Of a DNA stretch of 64,000 bases, positions 3,436-60,440 are shown in pieces. Position 1 is the stretch's first letter, and every line of letters begins with the position of its first letter. The stretch spans positions 28,667,419 to 28,731,418 of the forward strand of contig OZ020486.1 in assembly GCA_963971405.1 (NCBI GenBank), in the 5' to 3' direction. Below the pieces are notes generated by a model. The model had not been told where the DNA came from, ran no database searches, and saw only the letters and a list, made by a program, of their open reading frames with translations. Made by a program: the position numbers and the translations under genes. Source of the stretch: Psococerastis gibbosa (lineage: Eukaryota > Arthropoda > Insecta > Psocodea > Psocidae).

Positions 3436-3950
3436 AGAACCCAGTTTTTCTATATCCTTCAATTTCGGTTATAACGTGGAGGTTACCTCTTCAACCAAAG
3501 TTAATTCAATGTCAGTGTTTATACTCATATAATACTGCAATATAATGTGTAAAGCATTGCCTTTATGGCATTAACTAAGCTCGCAGACTTGTTCGGTTAG
3601 ATCGTTGTGTAGCTGTGCTAACCTGTCTAACATTACGAATCCTATAAGTAGAGGATATACATCAACTGTTCTTGTGCGGGCTTGTGGTCCAGCGGTTAAG
3701 ACGACGCCCCGGTTAGGCGTAGATCGTAGGTTCGAATCCCGCCAAGCCCAGTTTTTTCCATATCCTCTAATTTCGGTTATAACGAGGTGGTTACCTCTTT
3801 AACCAAAGTTAATTTAATGTCAGTGCTACATATACCATATAATACTACAATATATTGTGGTCGAGTGGTTAAGACGACGCCCCGGCTAGGCGTAGATCGT
3901 AGATTCGAGTCCCACCAAGCCCAGTTTTTCTATATCCTCTAATTTCAGTT
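3436..3950 (+). repeat. tRNA-derived SINE array (SINE family 1)
   Basis: In order: a tail plus spacer unit (3436-3677), a complete tRNA-like sequence (3678-3750), its tail (3751-3850), and a second 5'-truncated tRNA-like copy (3855-3923) with a short tail. The shared tail contains TATCCTCTAATTTCGGTTAT and ACCAAAGTTAATTTAATGTC. The tail in the first unit lies about 307 bp before the matching tail of the second. The minus-strand locus at 10942-11330 repeats the tail, spacer, tRNA-like, tail arrangement with a period of about 323 bp, so the tandem arrangement is a property of the family and not of one locus. Confidence 0.85.
3678..3750 (+). repeat. tRNA-like head of SINE family 1
   Basis: 73 nt that fold as a tRNA: acceptor GGGCTTG with CAAGCCC (7 of 7 pairs), D arm GTC with GAC, anticodon stem ACGCC with GGCGT (5 of 5), five-base variable loop AGATC, T loop TTCGAAT and discriminator A. 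The anticodon loop is CCGGTTA, so the anticodon position reads GGT (Thr), but position 33 is C where functional tRNAs have U. A run of six T (3752-3757), a polymerase III terminator, follows at once. Copies at three loci and C33 argue for a SINE head or tRNA-like repeat and against a decoding tRNA gene. Confidence 0.75.
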
Positions 3951-10941: not shown

Positions 10942-11330
10942 CAGACCGAAATTAGAGGATATGGAAAAAACTGGGCTTGGCGGGATTCGAACCCACGATC
11001 TACGCCTAACCGGGGCGTCGTCTTAACCGCTGGACCACAAGCCCCGACAAGTCCAGTAAATGTCAAATCCTCTACTTATGCTCTAATTGACATGATTCGT
11101 GTTGCTAGACAGGTTAGCACAACTACACAACTATCTAACCGAACAGGTCTGTGAGCTGACTTAATTGCATAAAGGCAATGCTTTATTCATTACATTGTAG
11201 TATTATATGGTATATATAACACTGACATTAAATTAACTTTGGTTGAAGAGGTAACCTCCTCGTTATAACCGAAATTAGAGGATATGGAAAAAACTGGGCT
11301 TGGCGGGATTCGAACCCACGATCTACGCCT
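10942..11330 (-). repeat. tRNA-derived SINE array (SINE family 1), minus strand
   Basis: On the minus strand: a 5'-truncated tRNA-like 3' half (11295-11329), tail and spacer, then a full tRNA-like head (10972-11044) and its tail (10942-10971). The full head has perfect acceptor, anticodon and T stems (GTGGG with CCCGC, one G-T pair), the same loop CCGGTTA, and is followed by a T run. The offset between the two tRNA-like 3' ends is about 323 bp. Confidence 0.85.
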
Positions 11331-15899: not shown

Positions 15900-16620
15900 T
15901 TTCAACATGTAGTTCTATGTACATTGTTGGAAGATCATCTATCCCATTGGAAAAAAACCATTCTCTTGCTCTGCAAAATAGTCCGAAACTACACGAACTA
16001 CTAAACTGTCGCCCAAAAATATCATGCCCTTTAAGTTCTTTTTCACAAGACGAAGCAGAAAAAAAAATCGCTGGCTGCCAAATCTGGACTGTAGGGAGAA
16101 TGGTTTAGTTCTTGGATGCCACAATCACGAACTACAGCCGCTGTTTTCGCCGACATGTGGTCTAGCGCGTTGTCATGCAGAAGCAACACTCCCTTGCTCA
16201 TCTTCCCTCGTCATATTTCAAGGATTATTTCAATCATTAGTCTCTTTGATACCCTCTGCTTAATACTCCAGGATATCGTCTTTTTATGCTCAATGTAGTC
16301 AATCAAAATTATTCCTTCTTCATCCTTAAAAAAGTGTGGCCATAGTCTTGCCTGCAGACATAGGATGGGTTTTTGCTTGGTTTCCGGATTTCAGTGGTGA
16401 CCGAAATTGGAGGATATAGATAAACTGGGCTTGGCGGGATTCGAACTCACGATCTACGCCTAACCGGGGCATCGTCTTAACGGCTCGACCACACGCCCGC
16501 ACAGAATGAATCCTTGTTTCATCGAAGGTTACTATACGCGACAAAAATTCTTCCTTGTCTTCGTTGTAGAGCGCCAGATTTTCATCTGAAATCTCTGAGC
16601 CCTCCATTGTTTTTGCAAGC
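15900..16620 (-). pseudogene. Mariner transposase remnant
   Basis: Coding relics lie on the minus strand, from EFLSRIVTFDET (near 16510-16550) down to the LHDNA and SPDLA region (near 16090-16190) and YFAEQE (near 15965). Several frames are needed to follow it, and it is split by the SINE at 16395-16504. A normal mariner transposase is about 345 residues; well under that is left. Confidence 0.8.
16395..16504 (-). repeat. SINE family 1 inserted in the mariner
   Basis: On the minus strand: GCGGGCGTGTGGTCGAGCCG, the anticodon arm, GTGAGTTCGAATCCCGCCAA and a short tail ending TATCCTCCAATTTCGGT. Only the tRNA-like head and about 30 nt of tail are present, which suggests that the mobile unit is about 105-110 bp long. 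Confidence 0.8.
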
Positions 16621-18078: not shown

Positions 18079-18461
18079 TCTCACCAACAGCTGTAGCCCC
18101 AATATGTTGATTTGCTGCAAAGACAATTCATGATAATATGGACATGAATAATCATGTACCGGTATGTTTTAATTGCACGAACAGCTAACCTCTTTGCATG
18201 ATGATTATCTTCGCTACTGACCTCTTCCTCGTAAAAAGAAATGAGTTATTTCCTATTGATGATCGAATAGGTTGTATTTATTATTTGATTGAATGGAACA
18301 TATTTCCAAGAAAATTAGTTACTCTACTTAATTCCAAAAAAATTGAATTCCTACAACGCCTTACATTTCATAATTATGTAATTTGCACTTCTGTCACACA
18401 TTGCATAATCGCATTAACGCAGACGTGTCCTGATTTGGAGATGACAATGGACCACACACAT

Positions 18462-18670
18462 GGTGCCGAATCCACTAACAATAGGTCAAACCTTCCGAAT
18501 TTGGAAGTTCTTAACAAACTGATTTTAACGATGCCACCAGGGCTCACACGAAGTAACTTACGGACCAGACACAGGGTGCCGAATCCACTAACAATAGGCC
18601 AAACCTTCCGAATTTGAAAGTTTTTAACAAACTGATTTTAACGATGCCAGGGCTCACACGAAGTAACTTA
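18462..18670. repeat. Tandem duplication, unit 113 bp, two copies
   Basis: Units start at 18462 and 18575 with GGTGCCGAATCCACTAACAA and end with GGGCTCACACGAAGTAACTT. The copies differ at few positions, so the duplication is fairly recent. An open frame of 139 codons runs through it, but it shows no recognisable feature. Confidence 0.85.
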
Positions 18671-19464
18671 CATCATATTAAGAAACTAATAACTTGCATG
18701 ACGCAACGTCAACACAGATGTTAGGACCTACGTCCCTTACTGTATGCCCCATGAAAAAGATCACAATGCTTACAGCAATCCGCAGGACGTGTCATCATTC
18801 GTATAAATTTTAATAGAAAGCGTGCTCAAATGTTTAGCTTCTGATGGTGGCACGAACAAGAAACATTCCTACGTTAGTGCTCAGAATATCCGGTTTTCGC
18901 CATTGCAAACTGGCGACACATTTAACTGTGGCTTAACAGTATATTGCATGATAGCATGAACTTTAAAAGGCGTCATAATCTGGACATGTAATAATAATCT
19001 TGCAAACACAGTGTGGCCACTGGCTGACTGCCCAATGTTCACCGACTGTACACTTATCGAAATGCTCAAAACGCACAGTCATGGATGATGAAAGTCCTTG
19101 AAGGCTCTATAATTTCCCGGACACTTGCGGAAGATGATCGAGTGTCATGAGTGGGACAACCATAAAAACATTGGCACACTTAAATCTTAAGTGTTTATAG
19201 CTGCCCCAAAAGCGTAGGAAGTGATTATAAAATGGGGCAACCCTTTGCCTTGCCACCCTCCATTACAGTCTCAACAACTTACTTCCAGCGTGCGTGATTC
19301 GGACCTATTACTGACCCAACACTCCTCTCCACGAAGAAATACGAGCAGCTTGTTCGTCATGTAGAAATTATTCGTGCGTGTTCTCACTCCCTCCCAACCC
19401 GTTGATGACCCTATTTCGTCTTCCGAACACTTGCTCTATAGTGACGAAAGAAAGTCACATGCGA

Positions 19465-29272: not shown

Positions 29273-29277
29273 ATGTA

Positions 29278-29911
29278 TGTCCGTGAATGCCTCGCATTGC
29301 ACAAGCTAAATATAGTTGCGGGTTGTTGTCGCAGGTACCTTACCCTAAATCGGGTAGGTACACAAGTACTCATCCCCGCATTTTACAGTTAGTGAATTCA
29401 GTCTCAATATTGTATCGGCTCCAATAGGTTGTATATTTATTTAATTATATAGCTATTGTTATTTACATTAATTTATTATAGTTGTGGTTGTAGTGTTTTC
29501 TTGTTTGTGTTATTATTCTTTATATTAAACAGTGTTTATTGTGCTCGCCCCTGCCGAGATTCCTGCGGATACTTTGCAAGCCACGGACTCCGGTAGTAGA
29601 TAAGTAGCGTAGCCTATTCACTCAAAACACATACACCCAGACACTTTACAGCACCACACTATACATTACATTTTATAATAGGTCTACCTACTGTACTACA
29701 CCTTCACCACCGAGTAAGCAGAGTACGGTAGGCTTATTCTCTTCCTTTCTTACCAATTCATAATTATTTTCATACAGTCCACTCTATTTTCATAGGTACC
29801 TAAACCTTCAGGAGCGTAATTTGGAGTTCTTAGTTATTAGCTTATTAGGATACGCCCCTGTTGTGAGTTAGGTACTTATTTTATTTTACTGAGTTATCGC
29901 AGAAAACCACA
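29278..29911 (+). repeat. 5' LTR of the BEL/Pao element
   Basis: 634 bp, TGTCCGTGAATGCC to GCAGAAAACCACA. Same length and, by eye, same sequence as the 3' LTR. It holds TCTTTATATTAAACAGTG (near 29517), an AT box that could serve the promoter. Confidence 0.93.
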
Positions 29912-29912
29912 T

Positions 29913-29930
29913 TGGTCCTTCGAGCCGGAT
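29913..29930 (+). other. Primer-binding site, tRNA-Tyr type
   Basis: TGGTCCTTCGAGCCGGAT begins one base after the 5' LTR. Its reverse complement, ATCCGGCTCGAAGGACCA, matches the 3' end of eukaryotic tRNA-Tyr plus CCA as I remember it. The position and CCA complement are seen directly; the tRNA identity is from known tRNA sequence. Confidence 0.8.
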
Positions 29931-30497
29931 CGGTCCTACGATCTGAATAGTTCTTTCTTTTGTCTTTTTACACCTTACTTCTAGCCCCGATTGTTTTATG
30001 CTATTGTCCAGTTCTGCATTTACATACCTGGCGCAACAATTCGCAACTATCAGCTCTTAGATAAGGTTGATATATTATTATTTTCGTAGGCATTACGATA
30101 TAATACAATATTATATTTTATTATAATTTTATATTTAATTATTGGCATTGAGCCTATTAGAATCTGTAGTAGCCTATGTTATAGAGCATGGTATAACGGT
30201 AACCGTTATATTGGTCGTGGGGATATTACTACCCAAGGACTGGTACCTGGATCTGACCTTCTCGTCACCCTCTTTCAATAGATACTTTTAGGGGGATTTT
30301 TTTGGAATTGGCAGGTTTTAGGGTCTTTATTGTTAAGACACCATTACATGGTACCGATACTATACGGTTTCTATTATTGAACTGACATTTGGGTCAATTT
30401 ATGGTGTCATAGTCATTGTGTTGTGCAAATAGGGGATTGAGTATAGCCTGTCCCGTTAGGTTCCCTTTTGTGAATTGTGGGTTCATTTATTGCGGAA

Positions 30498-33400
30498 ATG
30501 GCACCGACAAGAAGGCGAACCGTTAGAAGTGACCCTGATGCGTCTAATTGTAGTAGGCTACAAATTTTGCTTGACAAACGGTCAATGATTATTAATGACG
30601 TTAAGTCAATTTTAGCATATTTAAAATGCACCACATCTCTCACGCCCGGAGCTCTAAAGATCAAATCTCAGCGTGCTGAAGGATTGGTCACTCAATTCGA
30701 ATCTATAGAGTCTGAACTGATGGATATCAATTCCGGAAGTTCCACCTCCAGCCGCATATCGGTTGAAGCGGAGCGTGAGGAATTTTATTGTCTTTGTGAT
30801 GAAGTGCAGATTTTGGCCATTGATGGCATGGATAAGGGAACAGTGTCCAACTGTTCCGGCCCTGTTTGTGGCTTAGGCCCAAACTTGTTAAAGCCAATTG
30901 AAATCCCTACTCTTGAAAGCCACAATTTCGACATGTGGTATGCAGTTTTTGACAGCTTAGTCAACAGTAGTGCGTCTTGGACACCTACCGTTAAATTCCA
31001 TTACCTTATAAGCAGCTTAGGGCATGACGCCAAAGCCTTAATCAGTGAGTTCTTGCCAATATGCGATGCGAATTACGCTTTGGCATTGAATTGTTTAAAA
31101 TCGCATTTTGAAAATAAAAGGCTTAAGGCATCGACCATGGTCAGCAACATGCTCAATTGCTCTCCCCTTGCGTCTGGGCGGAGCAGCGCTGATTTAAGCA
31201 ATTTAATTCAGACTTTTCGGAATTCAATTAGCGCATTAGATAAAATGCAAATTAAAGATTTAACGGAATTTGTCTTCTTTCAAGCGCTCTACGCTAAAAT
31301 TGATGTTCAAACCCGTAGGGCATTTGACCATCAACTTAAAGACATTAAGGCGTTATGCAACGTACATGACCTAATAAAATTTTTACAGGCAAAGGTACAA
31401 GCTTCCGACCTAGATAAGGTTATAGCCAAACCTTTGAAAGCTAGCCTAAGCACTTTCAAGCCTAAATCGGCTCTTTTGGTGGACCCTGCGGACTCTGCCA
31501 ATGCTCGTAAAGCAGTGCGTCCAATCAGCAAGAAATGCCCGGTTTGCAATGGGTCCCACCCTGCATACCGGTGCCAGCAACTTTTGAAGCTGACTGTTCC
31601 CAAACGATGGGAAAAAGCTTTAGAAATAAAATTGTGTGCAAAATGCCTCAACAGCACTCAGCATTCGGCCGCTGAATGCCCTGTTGAATTTTTGTGTCGA
31701 AATTGCTCTGATGGAGATAATCAGCACAATAGTCTATTGTGCCGCAAAGGCGGTTCTTCTACTTTGGACCGAAAGCAAAGGCCTACTAACAATAGTACCT
31801 CTTTAGGGCACCGCCAGACTCCTACAACTTATGAGGAGCCAGCTAGTGCATTGGTGGCATCCGGTCCACAGGCTCTATTGGCTACGGCTGTAGTCACTAT
31901 TCATGGGTTTTCAATGCGTACTGTAATTGACAATGGAAGCCATCTTAGTTTTATAACAGAAAAGGCTGCTTCACAACTTGGTTGCAAGCGGTTTTACGAC
32001 AAAACTCTCATTCGAGGTATTGCCGGAACAACTAAGACCAAAGGAAGGGTTATCTTTACCATTGAATCAACTGTTAATCCCCATTTTAAGCAAAAGATTG
32101 AGGCTTTGGTTCTTCCCCAAATCTGCGGGAATCTTCCTTCTCGACCCGTCACTTCTGATATAAGTGGCCATTTAGGTGATATAGCCTTGGCTGATCCCCT
32201 TTTTTATAAACCTGCTAACGTAGACATTCTACTGGGAGCCAGAGTCTACTCCTCTATTTTAAGCGATTCCAAGCCTCTACTCAGGTTGGGTGGGCTAACG
32301 GCGCAGTGGACTCAGTTGGGTTACGTGCTACTGGGAAGTACGACTGCTGACGAAGCTTCCGTGTCACTTTTAGGTCTAAGTGTAGACCAGGATTTAACTG
32401 AGGATGTTGAGCGGTTATGTGAGATTGGAGAAGGTCCTAAGTCCATACCACTTTCTGCTGATGAACAGCTGGCTGAGGATATTTACTCACAAACTACAGT
32501 ATGTAGAGCTGACGGCAGAAATGAGGTACGACTACCCTTTAAGCCAAATGCTGTCCCATTAGTGAAAAATAACTTTTCACCCCTTAAGAGTCTGCTTTCA
32601 TTAGAAAGTAGGCTATGCAAGGAGCCCGAGAAATTTAAATTGTATCGGAATTTTTTTGCTGACTATCTTGAAAGCGGTATTCTAGAAAAGGCTAGAACCG
32701 TTTCAAAGTATATGTTACCTCATCATTCGGTTATCAAACGGTCCAGTAGTTGTACTCGTTTGCGGCCCGTTATGAATGCCAGTTGCCTCGACAAGAATGG
32801 CAACTCTCTGAATCCTCAATTGCTGACGGGACCAGCATTGCAAACTGATATTTGCGATGAGTTATTGTCTTTCAAAGAAAGAAGTGTTGGTTTGATACCC
32901 GACATTAGAAAAATGTACAATCAGGTTGTGATTGCTCCTGCTGATAGGTGTTATCAGCATATTTTGTGGAGGCCTGCACCTGATGGTGGTTCTGAGGAAC
33001 TTAAGTTCACTCGTGTGCTATTCAGCATGGCACCTAGTGCATTTTTAGCACAGCGAACTATAAAGCAGTTCATTGCTGACGAGAGCGTTAATTTCCGAAG
33101 AGGTACCAACATTTCGCTGACTCAGCTATATGTTGAAGATTTAATTACCAGTTTAGACGGCAGCGATGACGAAATCCGATTTGCTGTCAACGATTTGCTG
33201 CGCAAAGGTGGCTTTGAACTCCAAAAATTTGGAAGTTCACACCACAGCCTTTTGTTCAATCTACCGCGTGATCAATGTGAAGACACTGATCTACATGGCA
33301 AAAAGGCTGTAATTAAGGTATTCGGTCTATTTTGGACTTCAGCGAAAGATATTTTTATGTATCGAGTCACTGAGTTTAATTATGTATATACCAAGCGCGG

Positions 33401-34319
33401 AGTCCTAAGCTTTATTGCATGTCGTTATGACATTATGGGACTACTTGCCACTTTTACTGGAAAAACCAGACACTTTCTCTGCAAATTATGGGAAATTGGC
33501 ATTGATTGGGATGCAGTTTTCGACGAAAACTTGCGGAAAGAATGGCAAATTCTTATGGATGGTCTTCCATTTTTACAGGAATTAGGCCTACGTATTCCAC
33601 GTCTAATAGACTGTTTTGGTTGCCCAAAACTTGAGCTATATTGCTTTTCAGACAGTTCGTCTACTGGCTATGGCGTCGCCATTTATATTTGTTGTGTTTA
33701 TGAGGGTCACGCTACTATGACCCTGATGAGGGCAAAAGGTAGAACCATGCCCGCAAAATTCAAATCGCGCTTGACAGTCTCGAAAACTGAGCTACAGGCA
33801 GCTGATTTGCTCGTTAATATATACAGATGTATGAATTTTCTTAACGAATTACCGATGCAGCGAACCTATTTTTGCACAGATAGCACTATTGTGTTGTCGT
33901 GGTTGCGCTTAGGTGTAACTAAGCTGAAATTATTTTTGGCCAATTGTATTCCAATTATTTTGAGTAAAGCTAAAATTGAAGATTGGCGTTTCATTGGCTC
34001 TCAATTTAACGGTGCTGATCCAGCTTCCCGAGGTCTAGGCCCAGAACAGCCGCTGAACTATGTGCAACGGTGGCCTGATCCTCCCCTTTTGTTGCAAGTA
34101 CCTAGCGTATGGCCCAAGACACCTCCGTTTTGTTATGATATACCAAATTTAAAAGCGGAAAAGACTATGACATTGTTGTCTTCACCGCAAAATGATTTCG
34201 ACAAACGTTTTGTCGTCCGGTTTAGCTTTCCGATGAGACTACATCGTGTATTTTCACGGATTTTACAACTGCATTTGGGCCCTGTAAACAAATTTTTGCC
34301 CCTGCCATTTCAAAAGTAG
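30498..34319 (+). CDS. BEL/Pao Gag-Pol polyprotein without integrase
   Basis: 1273 residues from the first ATG (30498, good context GAAATGG). Order: DUF1759-like Gag about 130-300 (IPTLESHNFDMWY, FENKRLKAS); zinc knuckles C347-C359, C380-C394 and C400-C415; aspartic protease around D478 (VIDNGSHLSF, DNG where DSG or DQG is usual); reverse transcriptase about 700-960 with motif A Asp802 (LIPDIRKMYNQV) and LYVEDLI at 877-883; Pao RNase H with D1052, E1098, D1128 and D1174 (SDSSSTGYG, TELQ, CTDST, GADPASRG). The YxDD box reads YVED, so the first catalytic Asp is Glu. The frame ends soon after the RNase H linker with GPVNKFLPLPFQK, which resembles the extreme C-terminus of BEL/Pao Pol. This suggests an in-frame loss of the whole integrase. 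Confidence 0.93.
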   Translation: MAPTRRRTVRSDPDASNCSRLQILLDKRSMIINDVKSILAYLKCTTSLTPGALKIKSQRAEGLVTQFESIESELMDINSGSSTSSRISVEAEREEFYCLCDEVQILAIDGMDKGTVSNCSGPVCGLGPNLLKPIEIPTLESHNFDMWYAVFDSLVNSSASWTPTVKFHYLISSLGHDAKALISEFLPICDANYALALNCLKSHFENKRLKASTMVSNMLNCSPLASGRSSADLSNLIQTFRNSISALDKMQIKDLTEFVFFQALYAKIDVQTRRAFDHQLKDIKALCNVHDLIKFLQAKVQASDLDKVIAKPLKASLSTFKPKSALLVDPADSANARKAVRPISKKCPVCNGSHPAYRCQQLLKLTVPKRWEKALEIKLCAKCLNSTQHSAAECPVEFLCRNCSDGDNQHNSLLCRKGGSSTLDRKQRPTNNSTSLGHRQTPTTYEEPASALVASGPQALLATAVVTIHGFSMRTVIDNGSHLSFITEKAASQLGCKRFYDKTLIRGIAGTTKTKGRVIFTIESTVNPHFKQKIEALVLPQICGNLPSRPVTSDISGHLGDIALADPLFYKPANVDILLGARVYSSILSDSKPLLRLGGLTAQWTQLGYVLLGSTTADEASVSLLGLSVDQDLTEDVERLCEIGEGPKSIPLSADEQLAEDIYSQTTVCRADGRNEVRLPFKPNAVPLVKNNFSPLKSLLSLESRLCKEPEKFKLYRNFFADYLESGILEKARTVSKYMLPHHSVIKRSSSCTRLRPVMNASCLDKNGNSLNPQLLTGPALQTDICDELLSFKERSVGLIPDIRKMYNQVVIAPADRCYQHILWRPAPDGGSEELKFTRVLFSMAPSAFLAQRTIKQFIADESVNFRRGTNISLTQLYVEDLITSLDGSDDEIRFAVNDLLRKGGFELQKFGSSHHSLLFNLPRDQCEDTDLHGKKAVIKVFGLFWTSAKDIFMYRVTEFNYVYTKRGVLSFIACRYDIMGLLATFTGKTRHFLCKLWEIGIDWDAVFDENLRKEWQILMDGLPFLQELGLRIPRLIDCFGCPKLELYCFSDSSSTGYGVAIYICCVYEGHATMTLMRAKGRTMPAKFKSRLTVSKTELQAADLLVNIYRCMNFLNELPMQRTYFCTDSTIVLSWLRLGVTKLKLFLANCIPIILSKAKIEDWRFIGSQFNGADPASRGLGPEQPLNYVQRWPDPPLLLQVPSVWPKTPPFCYDIPNLKAEKTMTLLSSPQNDFDKRFVVRFSFPMRLHRVFSRILQLHLGPVNKFLPLPFQK

Positions 34320-34558
34320 GGTGCCTTAATTTTATTAGTATTAAAATTTTGTATTTTAATTTTAGCTTTAGTAGTGCATATCGTAACATTACCTACATTA
34401 ATACTTCGCCAAATTGTTTTAATTTTAGTTTGCATAGTGCATTTCATTTCATTCTTTTAAGCTTTAATATGCTTAAGATTGCATATAGTATATATGTATA
34501 TTTTTATATATTTCTTTATTTGTTTACCTTTTGCAAGTGCCTTGCAAGGCTGGCGGTA
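34320..34558 (+). other. 3' non-coding part of the BEL/Pao element
   Basis: 239 nt, very AT-rich, with no trace of the integrase zinc-binding or DDE motifs in any frame. The bases before the 3' LTR (GCAAGGCTGGCGGTA) are only weakly purine-rich. Confidence 0.7.
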
Positions 34559-35192
34559 TGTCCGTGAATGCCTCGCATTGCACAAGCTAAATATAGTTGC
34601 GGGTTGTTGTCGCAGGTACCTTACCCTAAATCGGGTAGGTACACAAGTACTCATCCCCGCATTTTACAGTTAGTGAATTCAGTCTCAATATTGTATCGGC
34701 TCCAATAGGTTGTATATTTATTTAATTATATAGCTATTGTTATTTACATTAATTTATTATAGTTGTGGTTGTAGTGTTTTCTTGTTTGTGTTATTATTCT
34801 TTATATTAAACAGTGTTTATTGTGCTCGCCCCTGCCGAGATTCCTGCGGATACTTTGCAAGCCACGGACTCCGGTAGTAGATAAGTAGCGTAGCCTATTC
34901 ACTCAAAACACATACACCCAGACACTTTACAGCACCACACTATACATTACATTTTATAATAGGTCTACCTACTGTACTACACCTTCACCACCGAGTAAGC
35001 AGAGTACGGTAGGCTTATTCTCTTCCTTTCTTACCAATTCATAATTATTTTCATACAGTCCACTCTATTTTCATAGGTACCTAAACCTTCAGGAGCGTAA
35101 TTTGGAGTTCTTAGTTATTAGCTTATTAGGATACGCCCCTGTTGTGAGTTAGGTACTTATTTTATTTTACTGAGTTATCGCAGAAAACCACA
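34559..35192 (+). repeat. 3' LTR of the BEL/Pao element
   Basis: 634 bp, apparently identical to the 5' LTR, followed by the target duplicate ATGTA at 35193-35197. Confidence 0.93.
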
Positions 35193-35197
35193 ATGTA

Positions 35198-37674: not shown

Positions 37675-39585
37675 GCCATGTGATATACCAGGGGTGAGTA
37701 AAAAAAGAAATTTAAGCAGCTCTCGTCAGATAGTGAATTATTTATATCCTTCAAACTGGTGTGGTGTTACATTATACCGTACTTGTAACTGATGGCAACC
37801 ATAACACTTATGTCAGAATTCTGCTATTTTAGGGCATATTTATTAGACGAATACGGTATATATATATTACTTTAAACTTTCATTCAAGCTTTGTCACAAT
37901 CATCACATAGACCAAATCTTCTGTTACAGTTTACCATCATTTCTGATCCCATCCCAAATTGGAACCCAAGCAGCACGCCTTTACAGACGCAAGGATGCCC
38001 TCTTCAACAATCACCGTCTTCCCCAACTATTACACCCCAGCAGCAGTGTCCACCTCAGCTATCGGATTTGGAAAACCTAGGCTTCTTCTCACAACCGCCC
38101 CCAAACTCCATGTCTAATCCCTTTGCAGCTCCCACATTACAGCAGTCCTCCAGCGTATGCGCCAATTCTTATCTTCCCCCGCCAAAATGTCCAAGGCTCC
38201 CACCAATGGACTTCAACATACCACCAGCACAACCCGATATCTCTCCTTTTCCCCAATCGGAGTTCAATTCCTTTAATAGAGGCTTAGAACCCCCCGTCAG
38301 CCTGGCATCATCTCCACCTGAGCAAAGTGTATTTCCTTTTTCGCAGCCTATAAATAATGCCCAGACACCTGAACAAATTTTAGCTTCCTTACTAACCTCA
38401 TCGTACCTTCCTAACAATGCACCCCGAAATACTCCCAGTTGTTCTTACTCACCTCCTCCCCCGCCCAATTCTATTCAATGTTCTCAGTTCAAACCGCATT
38501 CCAACGTTAACTTACCCAATTTCCCTTATGATTCGTCTCAAATTCCTTTCCCAGAATTTCCTACTTCATTATCAGCCCTTCCCAAAAATGCACCCAGAAA
38601 TACTGCTAGTTTTTCAAGTTCTCCCTCTTTCCCTGATTCTATTCAAAGCTCTCAGTTCCTACCGCCTTCCAATGACGTCAACTTACCTAATTTCCCTTAT
38701 GATTCGTCAATCTGTTCACAAATTCCTTTCCCAGAATTCCCTACTCCGATATCAGTTCCTTCTGAAAATGCACCCCGAAATACTCAAAGCTTTCCCTATT
38801 CCCCCTCCATCCCTAATTCTATTCAAAGCTCTCAGTTTCTACCGCCTTCCCACGTCAACTTACCAAATTTCCCTCGTGATTCGTCAGTCTGTCCTCAAAT
38901 TCCTTTCCCAGAATTTCCTACTTCATCATCACTTCTTTCTCAAATTCCTTTTCCAGACTTCCCACCTGCACCATCACTGCCACCTGTTTCCTCAGCAACA
39001 CCTTCTCAAATCCCCTTTCCAGACTTTCCCAACGCCCCACCACTTCATCCACAAGCGCAATCAACTCCATTTTTTCCTCCTTGTCCTTTACAACCCTCTC
39101 CACAGAATGTTATTTCCAAAACATCTACTCGAGATGCATGTTTTCAAGGTTTGCCCCCTTATCCTTCATATTTTCAATCACAATCATTTCCGCCACCACC
39201 ACCACCACCACCTCCTCCTCCCCCCTTGTCAACACCATCACAACTTCTGCTACCCAGTCCTGCCAACTTTCCCTCATCTTCCTCTCAATGCCCCTTGAAT
39301 CCATCCTCTGGTTTTCTTACCAAAGAATTAATTGAATTACTAAATTCAAACTACGGCCATAAGCCTTGTCAACAACTGCCTCCTCTAGCAGAGCCACAGT
39401 TCTTTGAAGGGCTAACACCAGCTTCCTCACCCGAGCAATTTCCATTTCCAGCCCCAATGGCACAACAAGCACCTCTCCGAACAACTTCCGACAATTTCTA
39501 TGCCTCACGTATCCCACCGCCTTTTCAATCGTCACCTTCCGCGGGATTATCAGAACCTGAACTAGCTCCATACTCAGATGGATGA
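37574..39585 (+). CDS. Secreted proline-rich repeat protein, two exons
   Basis: Exon 1 is 37574-37693 (40 codons), exon 2 37930-39585, and the intron (37694-37929, 236 bp) is phase 0 with donor GGG|GTGAGT and acceptor CTGTTACAG|TTT. The spliced product is 591 residues. Residues 1-20 are a signal peptide (NVIIIFTSLFLTLAVEG), followed by 14 Gln. The rest is disordered and rich in Pro, Ser, Phe, Gln and Asn, with three tandem units of 57-60 residues starting NAPRNT at 203, 260 and 320. The motif QIPFP(E/D)FP occurs five times, and 12 consecutive Pro lie at 461-472. Cys is spread thinly and Gly is scarce, so it is not silk-like. The role is probably extracellular structure, glue, cuticle, egg or saliva. 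I recognise no named family. The open frame, splice sites, TATA and poly(A) signals agree. Confidence 0.78.
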
Positions 39586-54576: not shown

Positions 54577-54825
54577 ACATTGGAAACATGGACACATGGT
54601 AAAAGTATTTGCCTAAGACTGCCACTGCCAGCCTACGACATTGGAAACATGGCAAATGGTAAAAGTATTTGCCTGAGACTGCCACTACCACCGTACGACA
54701 TTGGAAACATAGACAATTGTAAAAGTATTTGCCTAAGACTGCTACTGCTACCCTACGACATTGGAAACATGGGCACATGGTAAAAAAAGTATATGTCTAA
54801 GACTGTCACTACCACCCTACGACAG
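54577..54825. repeat. Minisatellite, 60-61 bp unit, four copies
   Basis: Units start ACATTGGAAACATGG at 54577, 54638, 54698 and 54758 and continue GTAAAAGTATTTGCCTAAGA / CTGCCACT and CCTACG. The period is a multiple of three, so both strands stay open and produce spurious repeat ORFs. Confidence 0.9.
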
Positions 54826-57605: not shown

Positions 57606-60440
57606 AATATTATTATTATTATTATTATTATATTTATTCAGTCCCATAAACATTACATAGTGATACATAGGTATTGCCACAGGCCAAGGCCGTGCGTGGC
57701 TAGTTAAAGGGATGTTAGTCAAGCTTAAAAATAAAGTTAGTTAAAAAAAAAAAAAAAATTAAAATTAATTAAAGATTACGTTAGGTTAGGTTAGTTGCTT
57801 ATTTTCTAAAAGTTCACAGTGCACTCAATAAAATTGTCCTTGATGCTGATTAGTTTAATATTGAAAAGAATTGAAATAAGTAAATGAATGAATGGAATCT
57901 TATTGGAAGGGGAGGGGGGGGGGGGAGTTGAAAATTACATATTCTTAAAAGAGATTCAAGTGCTGGGAAGCTTTGGTTATAAATACTCGTAGGCTTTTAC
58001 CATCCTTCAAGTTTCTGGGCAGATCATTATAGATAGAGAGTGCCTTGTATTGCGCTGTATTTTTAGTTTTACTTGTTCTTGGTTTTTCGTGCAGTAGGGG
58101 TTTTCTCTCTTTATATCTTGTGCCATGTTCGTGGGAGACTTCGGGATGCAGGCCTAAAAGCTTATTTTTGTATAACTGTATTAGAGATTGTTTGGTAAAT
58201 ATTTTATTGATGGTTGGGACTTTGGCAATATGAAAAAGCTCTTCAGTGGGGAATAATTTAGGCTTTTTGTACATAATTTTAAGGATTTTCTTTTGAATTT
58301 TAATTAGCCGTTCAAGTTCATTTTTATATGAAGCCCCCCATGCTATAATCCCATATTGTAAGTGTGACTGTATTAAAGCAAAGTATATGGCTCTCAGTAA
58401 GTGTTCATCAACTATATTCCTAACTTGGACGAATTTGTAAATAGATTTTCTAAGTTTCAATATAAGGGTATTAATTTGTTCCTGCCAGTTTAGTTTTTTG
58501 TCTATTATCAAACCAAGATATTTTGCGCTATCTACTCTTTGGATTCCCTCAATTCGGTAGTTGTCAGTTTGTATGTTGGTTTGTGAATTAGTGAACTCTA
58601 TATAATACGTTTTTTTTAAGTTTAGAGTAAGTAAATTGTCATTCATCCATGATTTTACAATTTTCAGATCATTGTTTGCAGACTCATATAGCTCGGCTCT
58701 TGTGGAGCCTCTGCATATTAGTATCGTATCATCCGCAAATGCATTTATTTTGCTACTTAGTTTTAAGGTTAATAAATCATTTAAGATTAAATTGAAGCAA
58801 AATGGTCCAAGTACCGTGCCTTGGGGTATGCCACACGTAACGGTATCTTCATCGCTAAAACAAATGCATTTGTCAGAACTAGGTAACGTTTTTGTTTTTT
58901 GTTTTCGATTAGTCAGGTAACTGGTTAGCAAAGTGTGGACTTGCCCTCTGAGCCCTAGTTTCTCCATTTTTTTAAGTAGTATACTGTGGGAAATAGTGTC
59001 AAAACCTTTTTTTAAGTCATTTAGGATGCAAAGACTGTATTGTTTCTTGTTAGAAATATCACTTAATTCATTTATTAGGTCATATATTGCTTCCGTTGTT
59101 CCCTTGTTTTTTTGGAATCCAAATTGCTGGGAAGAAATAAGCTTATGTTTTTCGGCAAAATCGCTTAGTCTGGTATATAGGACTTTTTCATAGATTTTAC
59201 TGATAGCAGGTAGTACTGATATTGGCCTATAGTTTGCAGGGTCATCTGGGCTATTGTCCTTGAATATTGGAGTGACTATTGCTAGCTTTAGGCTATCGGG
59301 AAACGTACAGGTCGACAAAGATGCATTGATGGCATGAGTTAACGGTTCCGCTATATGGGGTTTGACGGACTTAAGGGTATAGTTTGTAATATTGTCATGA
59401 CCGGGGGCAGAATAATTTTTTAAATTCGATATTATTGTACTTATTTCTTGTGGGGTTGTAGGGGTTAGGAACAGTGTATATGGATTAGATGGGATTGCTG
59501 CTAGGCGAATGTTCAGACTTGCTGGGTCATGGGGTATTTCACGGGCAAGGTTCGCGCCTACTTTTAAAAAGTATTCGTTAAATGCTTTGGAAGAGATGTT
59601 AGTTTCTTTAATGTTTTGTTTCTTCGTACCTCCAGTTATTTCATTTACTATTTCCCATTTTTTTCTCAAATTATGTCCTGCATCGTGTAATTTGTTTTGG
59701 TAATATGTGGACTTTATTATTTTAATTTGCGTTTTAACTTGGGCCGAGAATGATTTAGCATGAGATTTTAATATGAGGTCATGGGGTCGTTTCTTACTAT
59801 TTTTATGCAATTTATCACGATGTCGTATTGCTTCAACGATTTCAGTTGTTATCCATGGTTTCAACTTTTTTGTTTTGTTGTTGGGCTTAACTTCGAACTG
59901 CTTAGTATTATTTTGTATTTGTTTCTTGAAGATATGTAAGAAATTGTTGTATGTTGCATTGCCGTCGTTATTTAAATATACACTATCCCATGTTTCCTGT
60001 TCTAAGGACCGATTTAAGGCATTATAATCAATTTTATTTATTTTTAACTTGCACCCTAACTTATTTTCAATTTTTGAATAGTGGGAAGGCATGGGTAGGG
60101 ATAACAGTTGAGTATAGTGGTCAGTTATTGATGTTTGAATAACAAAGGATTGTATGTCGGTGGTGGAATAGTTTTCAGGGATATAAATATGGTCAATGCA
60201 TGATTGACTTACATCGGTAACTCTGGTGTAGTTTTTTATACACTGGACGTAGCCATGGCCGCTAAGCATATTTTGATATTCATCCCCCTCTTTGTCTAAC
60301 ACGTCGATGTTTATGTCTCCTGCTAAAATAGGGCCTAGTCCTAATTGATTTTTGCGCATATGTAAGCACATGTCAAGATCATAGGTTCTTGGCACGTTTA
60401 TGTCGAAATAAGGAACCTGCTTAGGTACTAGGTTATTTGA
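57606..60440 (-). mobile_element. Non-LTR retrotransposon (CR1/jockey-like group), 5'-truncated
   Basis: On the minus strand it runs from about 60440 inside the endonuclease domain, through an uninterrupted reverse transcriptase frame, to a 3' UTR of about 340 nt that ends GACTGAATAAATAT and (AAT)n at 57606-57630. Upstream of 60440 the frame meets a stop and homology ends, so the 5' part (ORF1 and the first part of the endonuclease) is lost. This is the usual outcome of incomplete target-primed reverse transcription. The unbroken frame suggests a young copy. Confidence 0.88.
57945..60436 (-). CDS. LINE endonuclease (C-terminal part) and reverse transcriptase
   Basis: About 830 codons are open; the first in-frame residues (NNLVPKQVPYFDINVPRTYD) lie upstream of any ATG, so there is no native start. 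Numbering from VPRTYDLD: endonuclease end with AGDINID 25-31, SCIDHIYI 65-72 and ITDHY 90-94; reverse transcriptase about 370-640 with NYRPISVLP 388, motif A NDLKKGFD (Asp460), GIPQG 522-526 and FADD 553-556 (both Asp present); then LGLIIDKKLNW and a C-terminal region with QYGIIAWG and YNDLPRNLK. All catalytic reverse transcriptase residues visible to me are kept. The missing endonuclease N-terminus makes this copy unable to move by itself. The clade is uncertain. Confidence 0.88.

What the first reader, a model, noticed from the sequence alone, without database searches (positions are those of the whole stretch)
30498..34319. A BEL/Pao element that lost its integrase in frame
Pol runs unbroken through RNase H and then ends in GPVNKFLPLPFQK, which looks like the last residues of normal BEL/Pao Pol (…RPVxKLxPLP). 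This fits a clean in-frame loss of the integrase and not decay. Together with intact LTRs and a target duplication, it points to a non-autonomous family that supplies Gag and reverse transcriptase and borrows integrase. Large coding-competent but integrase-less BEL elements are unusual.
Basis: partly seen in the sequence, partly recalled or inferred. Interest (0 to 1): 0.75.

Follow-up and report, generated by a model that had tools for sequence, protein, structure and literature searches.

The report
Retrotransposon family without its own integrase
This genome holds a family of young, near-identical BEL/Pao retrotransposons whose single gene has cleanly lost the integrase part, and they appear to spread by borrowing enzymes from closely related complete elements that share the same ends.

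Summary
The window carries a BEL/Pao element (29278-35192) with identical 634-bp LTRs, a 5-bp target duplication (ATGTA) and one 1,273-codon Gag-PR-RT-RNase H frame that ends 14 residues after a clean integrase loss. It is not unique: the junction occurs at 27 places, 25 of 26 close copies keep frames of 1,280-1,284 aa, and 13 of 14 examined have 5-bp duplications. Integrase lies at 18 places; the 13 read carry it at this very point, between LTRs 97-100% identical to the window's. Mosaics in both directions suggest that both RNAs shared particles. A diverged copy (L039) has the same junction, so the loss is not recent. One correction: RT is doubtful. Its motif reads YVED in 23 of 26 copies (a 24th from its other locus), against YVDD in 9 of 9 complete C-type copies and in L039. 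The family most likely brings Gag and borrows integrase, probably RT too. This is a new variant of a known kind, resembling mouse IAP 1-delta-1 elements. Mobilisation was not tested.

The parts
29273..29277 (+). target-site duplication, left copy (ATGTA)
29278..29911 (+). 5' LTR, 634 bp, TGTCC...CCACA
   Evidence: identical to the 3' LTR
29912..29930 (+). putative tRNA primer-binding site, directly after the LTR
   Evidence: sequence; two main sequence variants among copies; the tRNA was not identified (one search found no match among the window's tRNAs)
30498..34319 (+). single Gag-PR-RT-RNase H frame, 1,273 codons, no integrase
30927..31349 (+). DUF1759 (BEL/Pao Gag)
   Evidence: E 1e-12
31536..31742 (+). 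three Cys-His boxes
   Evidence: motif search
31893..32135 (+). aspartyl protease, active-site triplet DNG
   Evidence: (below Pfam cut-off)
32640..33389 (+). reverse transcriptase region; motif YVED at 33129-33140; limits approximate
   Evidence: homologous to the C-type RT that weakly matches RVT_1
33390..33884 (+). Peptidase_A17 (Pao) match, covering the start of RNase H
   Evidence: E 3.6e-26
33645..34028 (+). RNase H region; acidic motifs FSDSS, KTEL, TDST, ADPAS all present
   Evidence: assignment to RNase H by motif and position, partly recalled
34267..34273 (+). integrase-loss junction (7 bp where relatives carry 1,360 bp)
34275..34316 (+). last 14 codons, corresponding to the end of the relatives' integrase (end of DUF5641)
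34559..35192 (+). 3' LTR, 634 bp
35193..35197 (+). target-site duplication, right copy (ATGTA)

Best explanation
The window copy belongs to an integrase-less BEL/Pao subfamily (type A) that spreads as a parasite of complete sister elements (type C, and type B, a recombinant of A and C). Shown: the precise in-frame loss, many young copies, shared LTRs, short target duplications, sister elements with integrase, and mosaics between them. Inferred: type A RNA is packaged in the same particles as type C RNA, type C integrase (and probably type C RT) completes the cycle, and type A contributes its own Gag. The loss happened in an older ancestor, most simply once, possibly by template switching at a shared TTTG, and the RT drifted later.
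For: Junction at 27 places: 14 exact, 12 with one mismatch, 1 (L039) with two; control 0. Open frame of 1,280-1,284 aa in 25 of 26 close copies. Integrase at 18 places, 18 of 18 candidates scored; the relatives' extra segment matches DUF5641 (5.9e-26) and, below cut-off, Integrase_H2C2 and rve_3, with D(65)D(51)E spacing and an HxxxxH...CxxC motif. LTRs of the 13 complete copies read (of 18) are 97-100% identical to the window's. Five-base duplications in 13 of 14 type A copies and 10 of 13 complete copies, with a six-base one in an 11th (L040), as one integrase would leave. Aligned LTR pairs differ by 0-1 base in 14 of 14 type A copies (one over 518 bp only, one with 7 gap positions) and in the 12 complete copies with both LTRs, gaps aside (local alignment can trim end bases): recent activity of both. 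Mosaics: type B is A-like up to about 33955 and C-like after it; L010 and L017 are C-like upstream and A-like downstream, without integrase. L039, diverged, with 13 mismatches in 524 aligned columns between its LTRs, has the same junction and groups with type A in the tail.
Against: No expression, particle or mobilisation data. Mosaics could also arise by gene conversion between chromosomal copies. Against RT decay: type B, with the same YVED RT, has 4 copies with intact frames and LTR pairs without a mismatch; along the A branch replacement:silent changes in RT (12:8) do not differ from the C branch (28:17), Fisher p = 1.0; L010 is integrase-less with YVDD. Most C copies read (8 of 9) have a DNG protease triplet, which PMC554778 regards as probably inactivating, so even the presumed helpers may not be fully competent.
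Confidence: 0.8

Rival explanations
1. Type A supplies working Gag and RT and lacks only integrase; YVED is tolerated.
For: The frame is open in 25 of 26 copies; the A branch is no more relaxed than the C branch in RT; type B carries the same RT in 4 young full-length copies; RNase H acidic motifs are present.
Against: YVED in 23 of 26 copies and in a 24th by its upstream locus L005, and a further change at the second aspartate in L025; RVT_1 not detected in A but weakly detected in C; within type A the RT-RNase H part has 12 replacement to 2 silent variants, as expected without selection, while Gag-PR has 13 to 14. PMC554778 (passages read) states that mutating either aspartate of YXDD inactivates retroviral RT.
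Confidence: 0.3
2. Type A inserts without any integrase, by host repair or another element's machinery.
For: It encodes no recognisable integrase.
Against: Complete LTR ends and 5-bp duplications in 13 of 14 copies, like those of the complete elements.
Confidence: 0.04
3. The integrase loss is an assembly collapse or one decayed copy duplicated with its surroundings.
For: None found.
Against: 27 places, different 3' flanks in 26 of 26 close copies and 13 separate target duplications.
Confidence: 0.01

Closest known systems
BEL/Pao LTR retrotransposons (Belpaoviridae)
   Same: DUF1759 Gag, three Cys-His boxes, aspartyl protease, Pao-type Peptidase_A17 region, LTR ends TG...CA, 5-bp duplications
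   Different: no integrase; RT motif YVED, where PMC554778 (passages) gives YVDD for Pao and BEL and YVDN for Cer7-Cer12
Mouse IAP 1-delta-1 elements
   Different: a mouse endogenous retrovirus, not BEL/Pao; its 1.9-kb deletion removes part of gag and pol, whereas here only integrase is removed
Wheat RLG_WHAM and RLG_Sabrina with partner RLG_Wilma
   Same: non-autonomous LTR elements assigned to a partner by shared LTR ends, similar PBS and coincident activity (PMC9744471, passages)
   Different: the wheat elements lack RT and integrase coding sequence and share almost no sequence with the partner; here LTRs (97-100%) and gag (92-100% in 150-column steps) are nearly the same

Membership tests
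BEL/Pao LTR retrotransposon | LTRs with TG...CA ends and short target duplication | tested here: met
BEL/Pao LTR retrotransposon | BEL Gag with triple Cys-His box | tested here: met
BEL/Pao LTR retrotransposon | Pao-type Pol (Peptidase_A17) in the order PR-RT-RNase H | tested here: met
   RT itself only through homology to the C-type RT
BEL/Pao LTR retrotransposon | YVDD active site in RT | tested here: not met
   YVED in the window copy; YVDD in type C relatives. The family is not defined by this alone (YVDN is reported in Cer7-12)
BEL/Pao LTR retrotransposon | integrase downstream of RNase H | tested here: not met
   absent in the window copy; present in sisters B and C at the same point. 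Filed as a non-autonomous derivative of BEL/Pao, not as an autonomous member
Non-autonomous LTR element with a partner in the same genome | LTR ends shared with a complete partner | tested here: met
Non-autonomous LTR element with a partner in the same genome | same primer-binding site | tested here: met
   read in 17 of the 28 sequences examined: two main variants, both found in A, B and C copies, and a third form in L055; in type A only the window copy, of 10 read, has the first variant
Non-autonomous LTR element with a partner in the same genome | both active at the same time | tested here: met
   aligned LTR pairs 0-1 mismatch in both classes
Non-autonomous LTR element with a partner in the same genome | movement depends on the partner's proteins | not testable with these tools
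   needs an experiment or a genome without the partner

The most novel reading that the evidence does not exclude
A BEL/Pao satellite lineage that lost integrase long ago and later its RT active site, keeps a full Gag-Pro-Pol-like frame mainly for Gag and protease, outnumbers its helpers (26 close copies against 18 integrase places), and repeatedly exchanges modules with them, in one case (type B) joining an integrase to a probably dead RT.
Probability: 0.5. Interest if true: 0.6.

Novelty: new variant of a known kind. Interest (0 to 1): 0.5.

Why it matters
It gives a natural case in which helper and dependent forms of one LTR element differ by a single clean domain, both are young, and recombinants record their contact. 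That makes it possible to ask which Pol functions must be supplied in cis and which can be borrowed, and whether an open frame persists because Gag acts on its own RNA.

Tried and rejected
Relatives in viral contigs: none for the RT-to-tail part. RT by sequence in the PDB: only chance-level matches. Structure of the relatives' integrase from a single sequence: mean pLDDT 33, unusable, and no PDB sequence match. Rfam on the window gave four tRNA matches and nothing in the element. No promoter or terminator scan was run. Papers on this question: searches brought no report of a BEL/Pao family that lacks only integrase among the titles and abstract starts listed (one search listed none; searches list only the best of their hits); that is not proof that none exists. 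One search (RT aspartate mutants) found nothing and 51 nothing used; 50 gave the IAP papers. PMC3087523, PMC8556966, PMC9744471, PMC6466679, PMC3442997, PMC3118150 and PMC554778 were read as passages only. Three-taxon polarisation of RT changes did not support relaxed evolution on the A branch. Among the other BEL families I did not look for further integrase-less ones beyond the frame lengths (131 scored of 394).

Full report
What is there. The window holds one BEL/Pao LTR element on the + strand at 29278-35192. Its LTRs are 634 bp with no difference, flanked by the duplication ATGTA. One frame of 1,273 codons, from the ATG at 30498 to the stop ending at 34319, encodes DUF1759 Gag, three Cys-His boxes, an aspartyl protease with triplet DNG, a reverse transcriptase region, and an RNase H region with its acidic motifs. 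No integrase or DUF5641 match was found. The last 14 residues correspond to the last residues of the relatives' integrase.

Copies in the genome. A 1-kb gag query gave 40 scored of 54 candidates, all 40 at 99-100%. A 950-bp query across the junction gave 40 scored of 68 candidates: 26 full-length matches at 100% (the window copy included; type A), one at 86% (L039), 4 at 92% (type B) and 9 at 85% (type C) that stop at window position 34266. These last 14 were fetched. In 13 of the 14 (L040-L052) 1,360 bp stand where the window has 7 bp, net 1,353 bp; L039 has no such segment. In L042 that segment matches DUF5641 (5.9e-26) and, below the curated cut-off, Integrase_H2C2 and rve_3; the spacing is D(65)D(51)E, with a CxxC after an HxxxxH. 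PMC554778 gives DD(49)E for Sinbad and Saci-1 (passages). Integrase DNA occurs at 18 places, all 18 candidates scored: 17 over the full query and one partial. The junction occurs at 27 places with up to 3 mismatches allowed (at most 2 seen), 0 in the control. A DUF5641 search of the genome listed the best 150 of 402 candidates, none of them in a type A copy (capped list).

State of the copies. Frames of 1,280-1,284 aa are open in 25 of 26 type A copies; the other (L028) carries an inserted stretch of about 3.8 kb, inferred from the distance between its matches. Among the 17 integrase-bearing places that match the same query, 13 have frames of 1,734-1,735 aa. LTR pairs were compared in 14 of 26 type A copies, and the 12 other 5' ends could not be fetched. 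They differ by 0-1 aligned base; L011 was compared over 518 bp only and L019 has 7 gap positions. The 12 complete copies with both LTRs also differ by 0-1, L051 with 19 gap positions and L052 over 601 bp; L046 lacks a 5' LTR. L039 has 13 mismatches and 31 gap positions over 524 columns (all; local alignment can trim bases at the very ends). Five-base duplications: 13 of 14 type A copies, 10 of 13 complete copies, and L039; one further complete copy, L040, has a six-base one. The failures lack an LTR end: L011, L046, L052.

Three types and their exchange. In 150-column steps, A and B are 98-100% identical up to about 33915; then B switches to be 99-100% identical with C through the integrase and 3' end, while A is 82-90% identical to both around the junction and 96-100% in the 3' UTR and LTR. 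C differs from A by about 5-14% in RT and RNase H, but only 0-8% in LTR and gag. Among the 26 type A loci, L010 is C-like up to about 33300, L017 up to about 32937, and L011 and L034 carry a third RT type between about 32647 and 33085 (which examined 7 of the 26). L039 is integrase-less with the same junction; in the tail it is 91-96% identical to A and 81-86% to C. So the loss predates the L039 insertion, and modules have been exchanged in both directions. The simplest cause is template switching in particles holding both RNAs; gene conversion is not excluded. At the junction both sides of the relatives' segment share TTTG (by eye), which suggests, without proving, a template-switch or slippage origin.

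Is the RT alive? The motif is YVED in 23 of 26 type A loci and 4 of 4 type B copies, and YVDD in L010, in 9 of 9 type C copies and in L039. It was not found in L028 and L025. The L028 copy is interrupted, and its upstream locus L005 reads YVED; L025 carries a further change at the second aspartate (frame). Pfam RVT_1 finds the type C RT (E 7.3e-05, below the curated cut-off) and weakly L039 (E 0.082), but not type A. Peptidase_A17 scores 125.9 bits in C and 94.3 in A and B. Among 21 type A copies (5 mosaic or rearranged ones left out of 26) the RT-RNase H part has 12 replacement and 2 silent variants, near the neutral expectation (p = 0.75). Gag-PR in 8 copies has 13 and 14 (p = 0.001). The contrast is p = 0.04 by Fisher, but 17 of the 27 Gag-PR sites separate the window copy from the other seven as a block, so this is a hint only. 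Between A and C, dN/dS is 0.23 in gag, 0.10 in PR, 0.47 in RT, 0.29 in RNase H and 0.42 in the following tail. Against decay, the A and C branches do not differ in RT (replacement:silent 12:8 and 28:17, p = 1.0) and look alike in RNase H (11:12 and 13:12); only the short tail leans to replacements on A (10:2 against 21:17). L039, itself decayed, is the only third sequence. PMC554778 states that mutation of either aspartate of YXDD inactivates retroviral RT (passage). I conclude that RT is probably borrowed, with moderate confidence.

How it most likely works. Type A RNA is made from LTRs nearly identical to those of the complete elements, its frame gives Gag and protease, it enters particles that also hold type C Gag-Pol, is copied there, and is inserted by type C (or B) integrase, which leaves the same short duplication. 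The shared ends, PBS variants, ages and mosaics are shown; the co-packaging and the enzyme supply are inferred. A caution on the helpers: 8 of 9 type C copies have the protease triplet DNG, which PMC554778 regards as probably inactivating though it also occurs in Moose. Of the tests used for wheat partners (PMC9744471, passages), shared LTR ends, PBS and timing are met here. [quoted passage not shown]

Judgement. The finding is real and its main reading is right, with a correction on RT. Dependent LTR elements are well known; one that has lost only integrase in an otherwise full BEL/Pao frame, is older than its present burst, and recombines with its helpers is, as far as my searches show, an uncommon variant.

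Noticed in passing
window 57945-60395, - strand: 816-codon frame that looks by eye like a non-LTR (LINE-type) reverse transcriptase; no family search was run on it.
   Followed up: no
window 37891-39585, + strand: 564-codon proline-rich frame with a 180-bp tandem repeat at 38406-38944.
   Followed up: no
window 3678-3750, 10972-11044, 16426-16498: Three tRNA-Thr (GGT) genes within 13 kb; a fourth weaker tRNA match at 3855-3918.
   Followed up: no
window 29912-29930 and the same place in relatives: Two main primer-binding-site variants, not following the A, B, C types, which suggests use of two primer tRNAs (17 of 28 sequences read).
   Followed up: partly
window 31923-31940 and relatives: Protease triplet DNG in A, B and 8 of 9 C copies and DSG in one; PMC554778 lists DNG for Moose.
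   Followed up: partly
G000:C2:4701165-4737027: Five BEL matches of another family spaced about 8.76 kb apart, apparently a tandem array.
   Followed up: no
window 54577-54824 and 18449-18671: Tandem arrays with 60-bp and 113-bp units.
   Followed up: no
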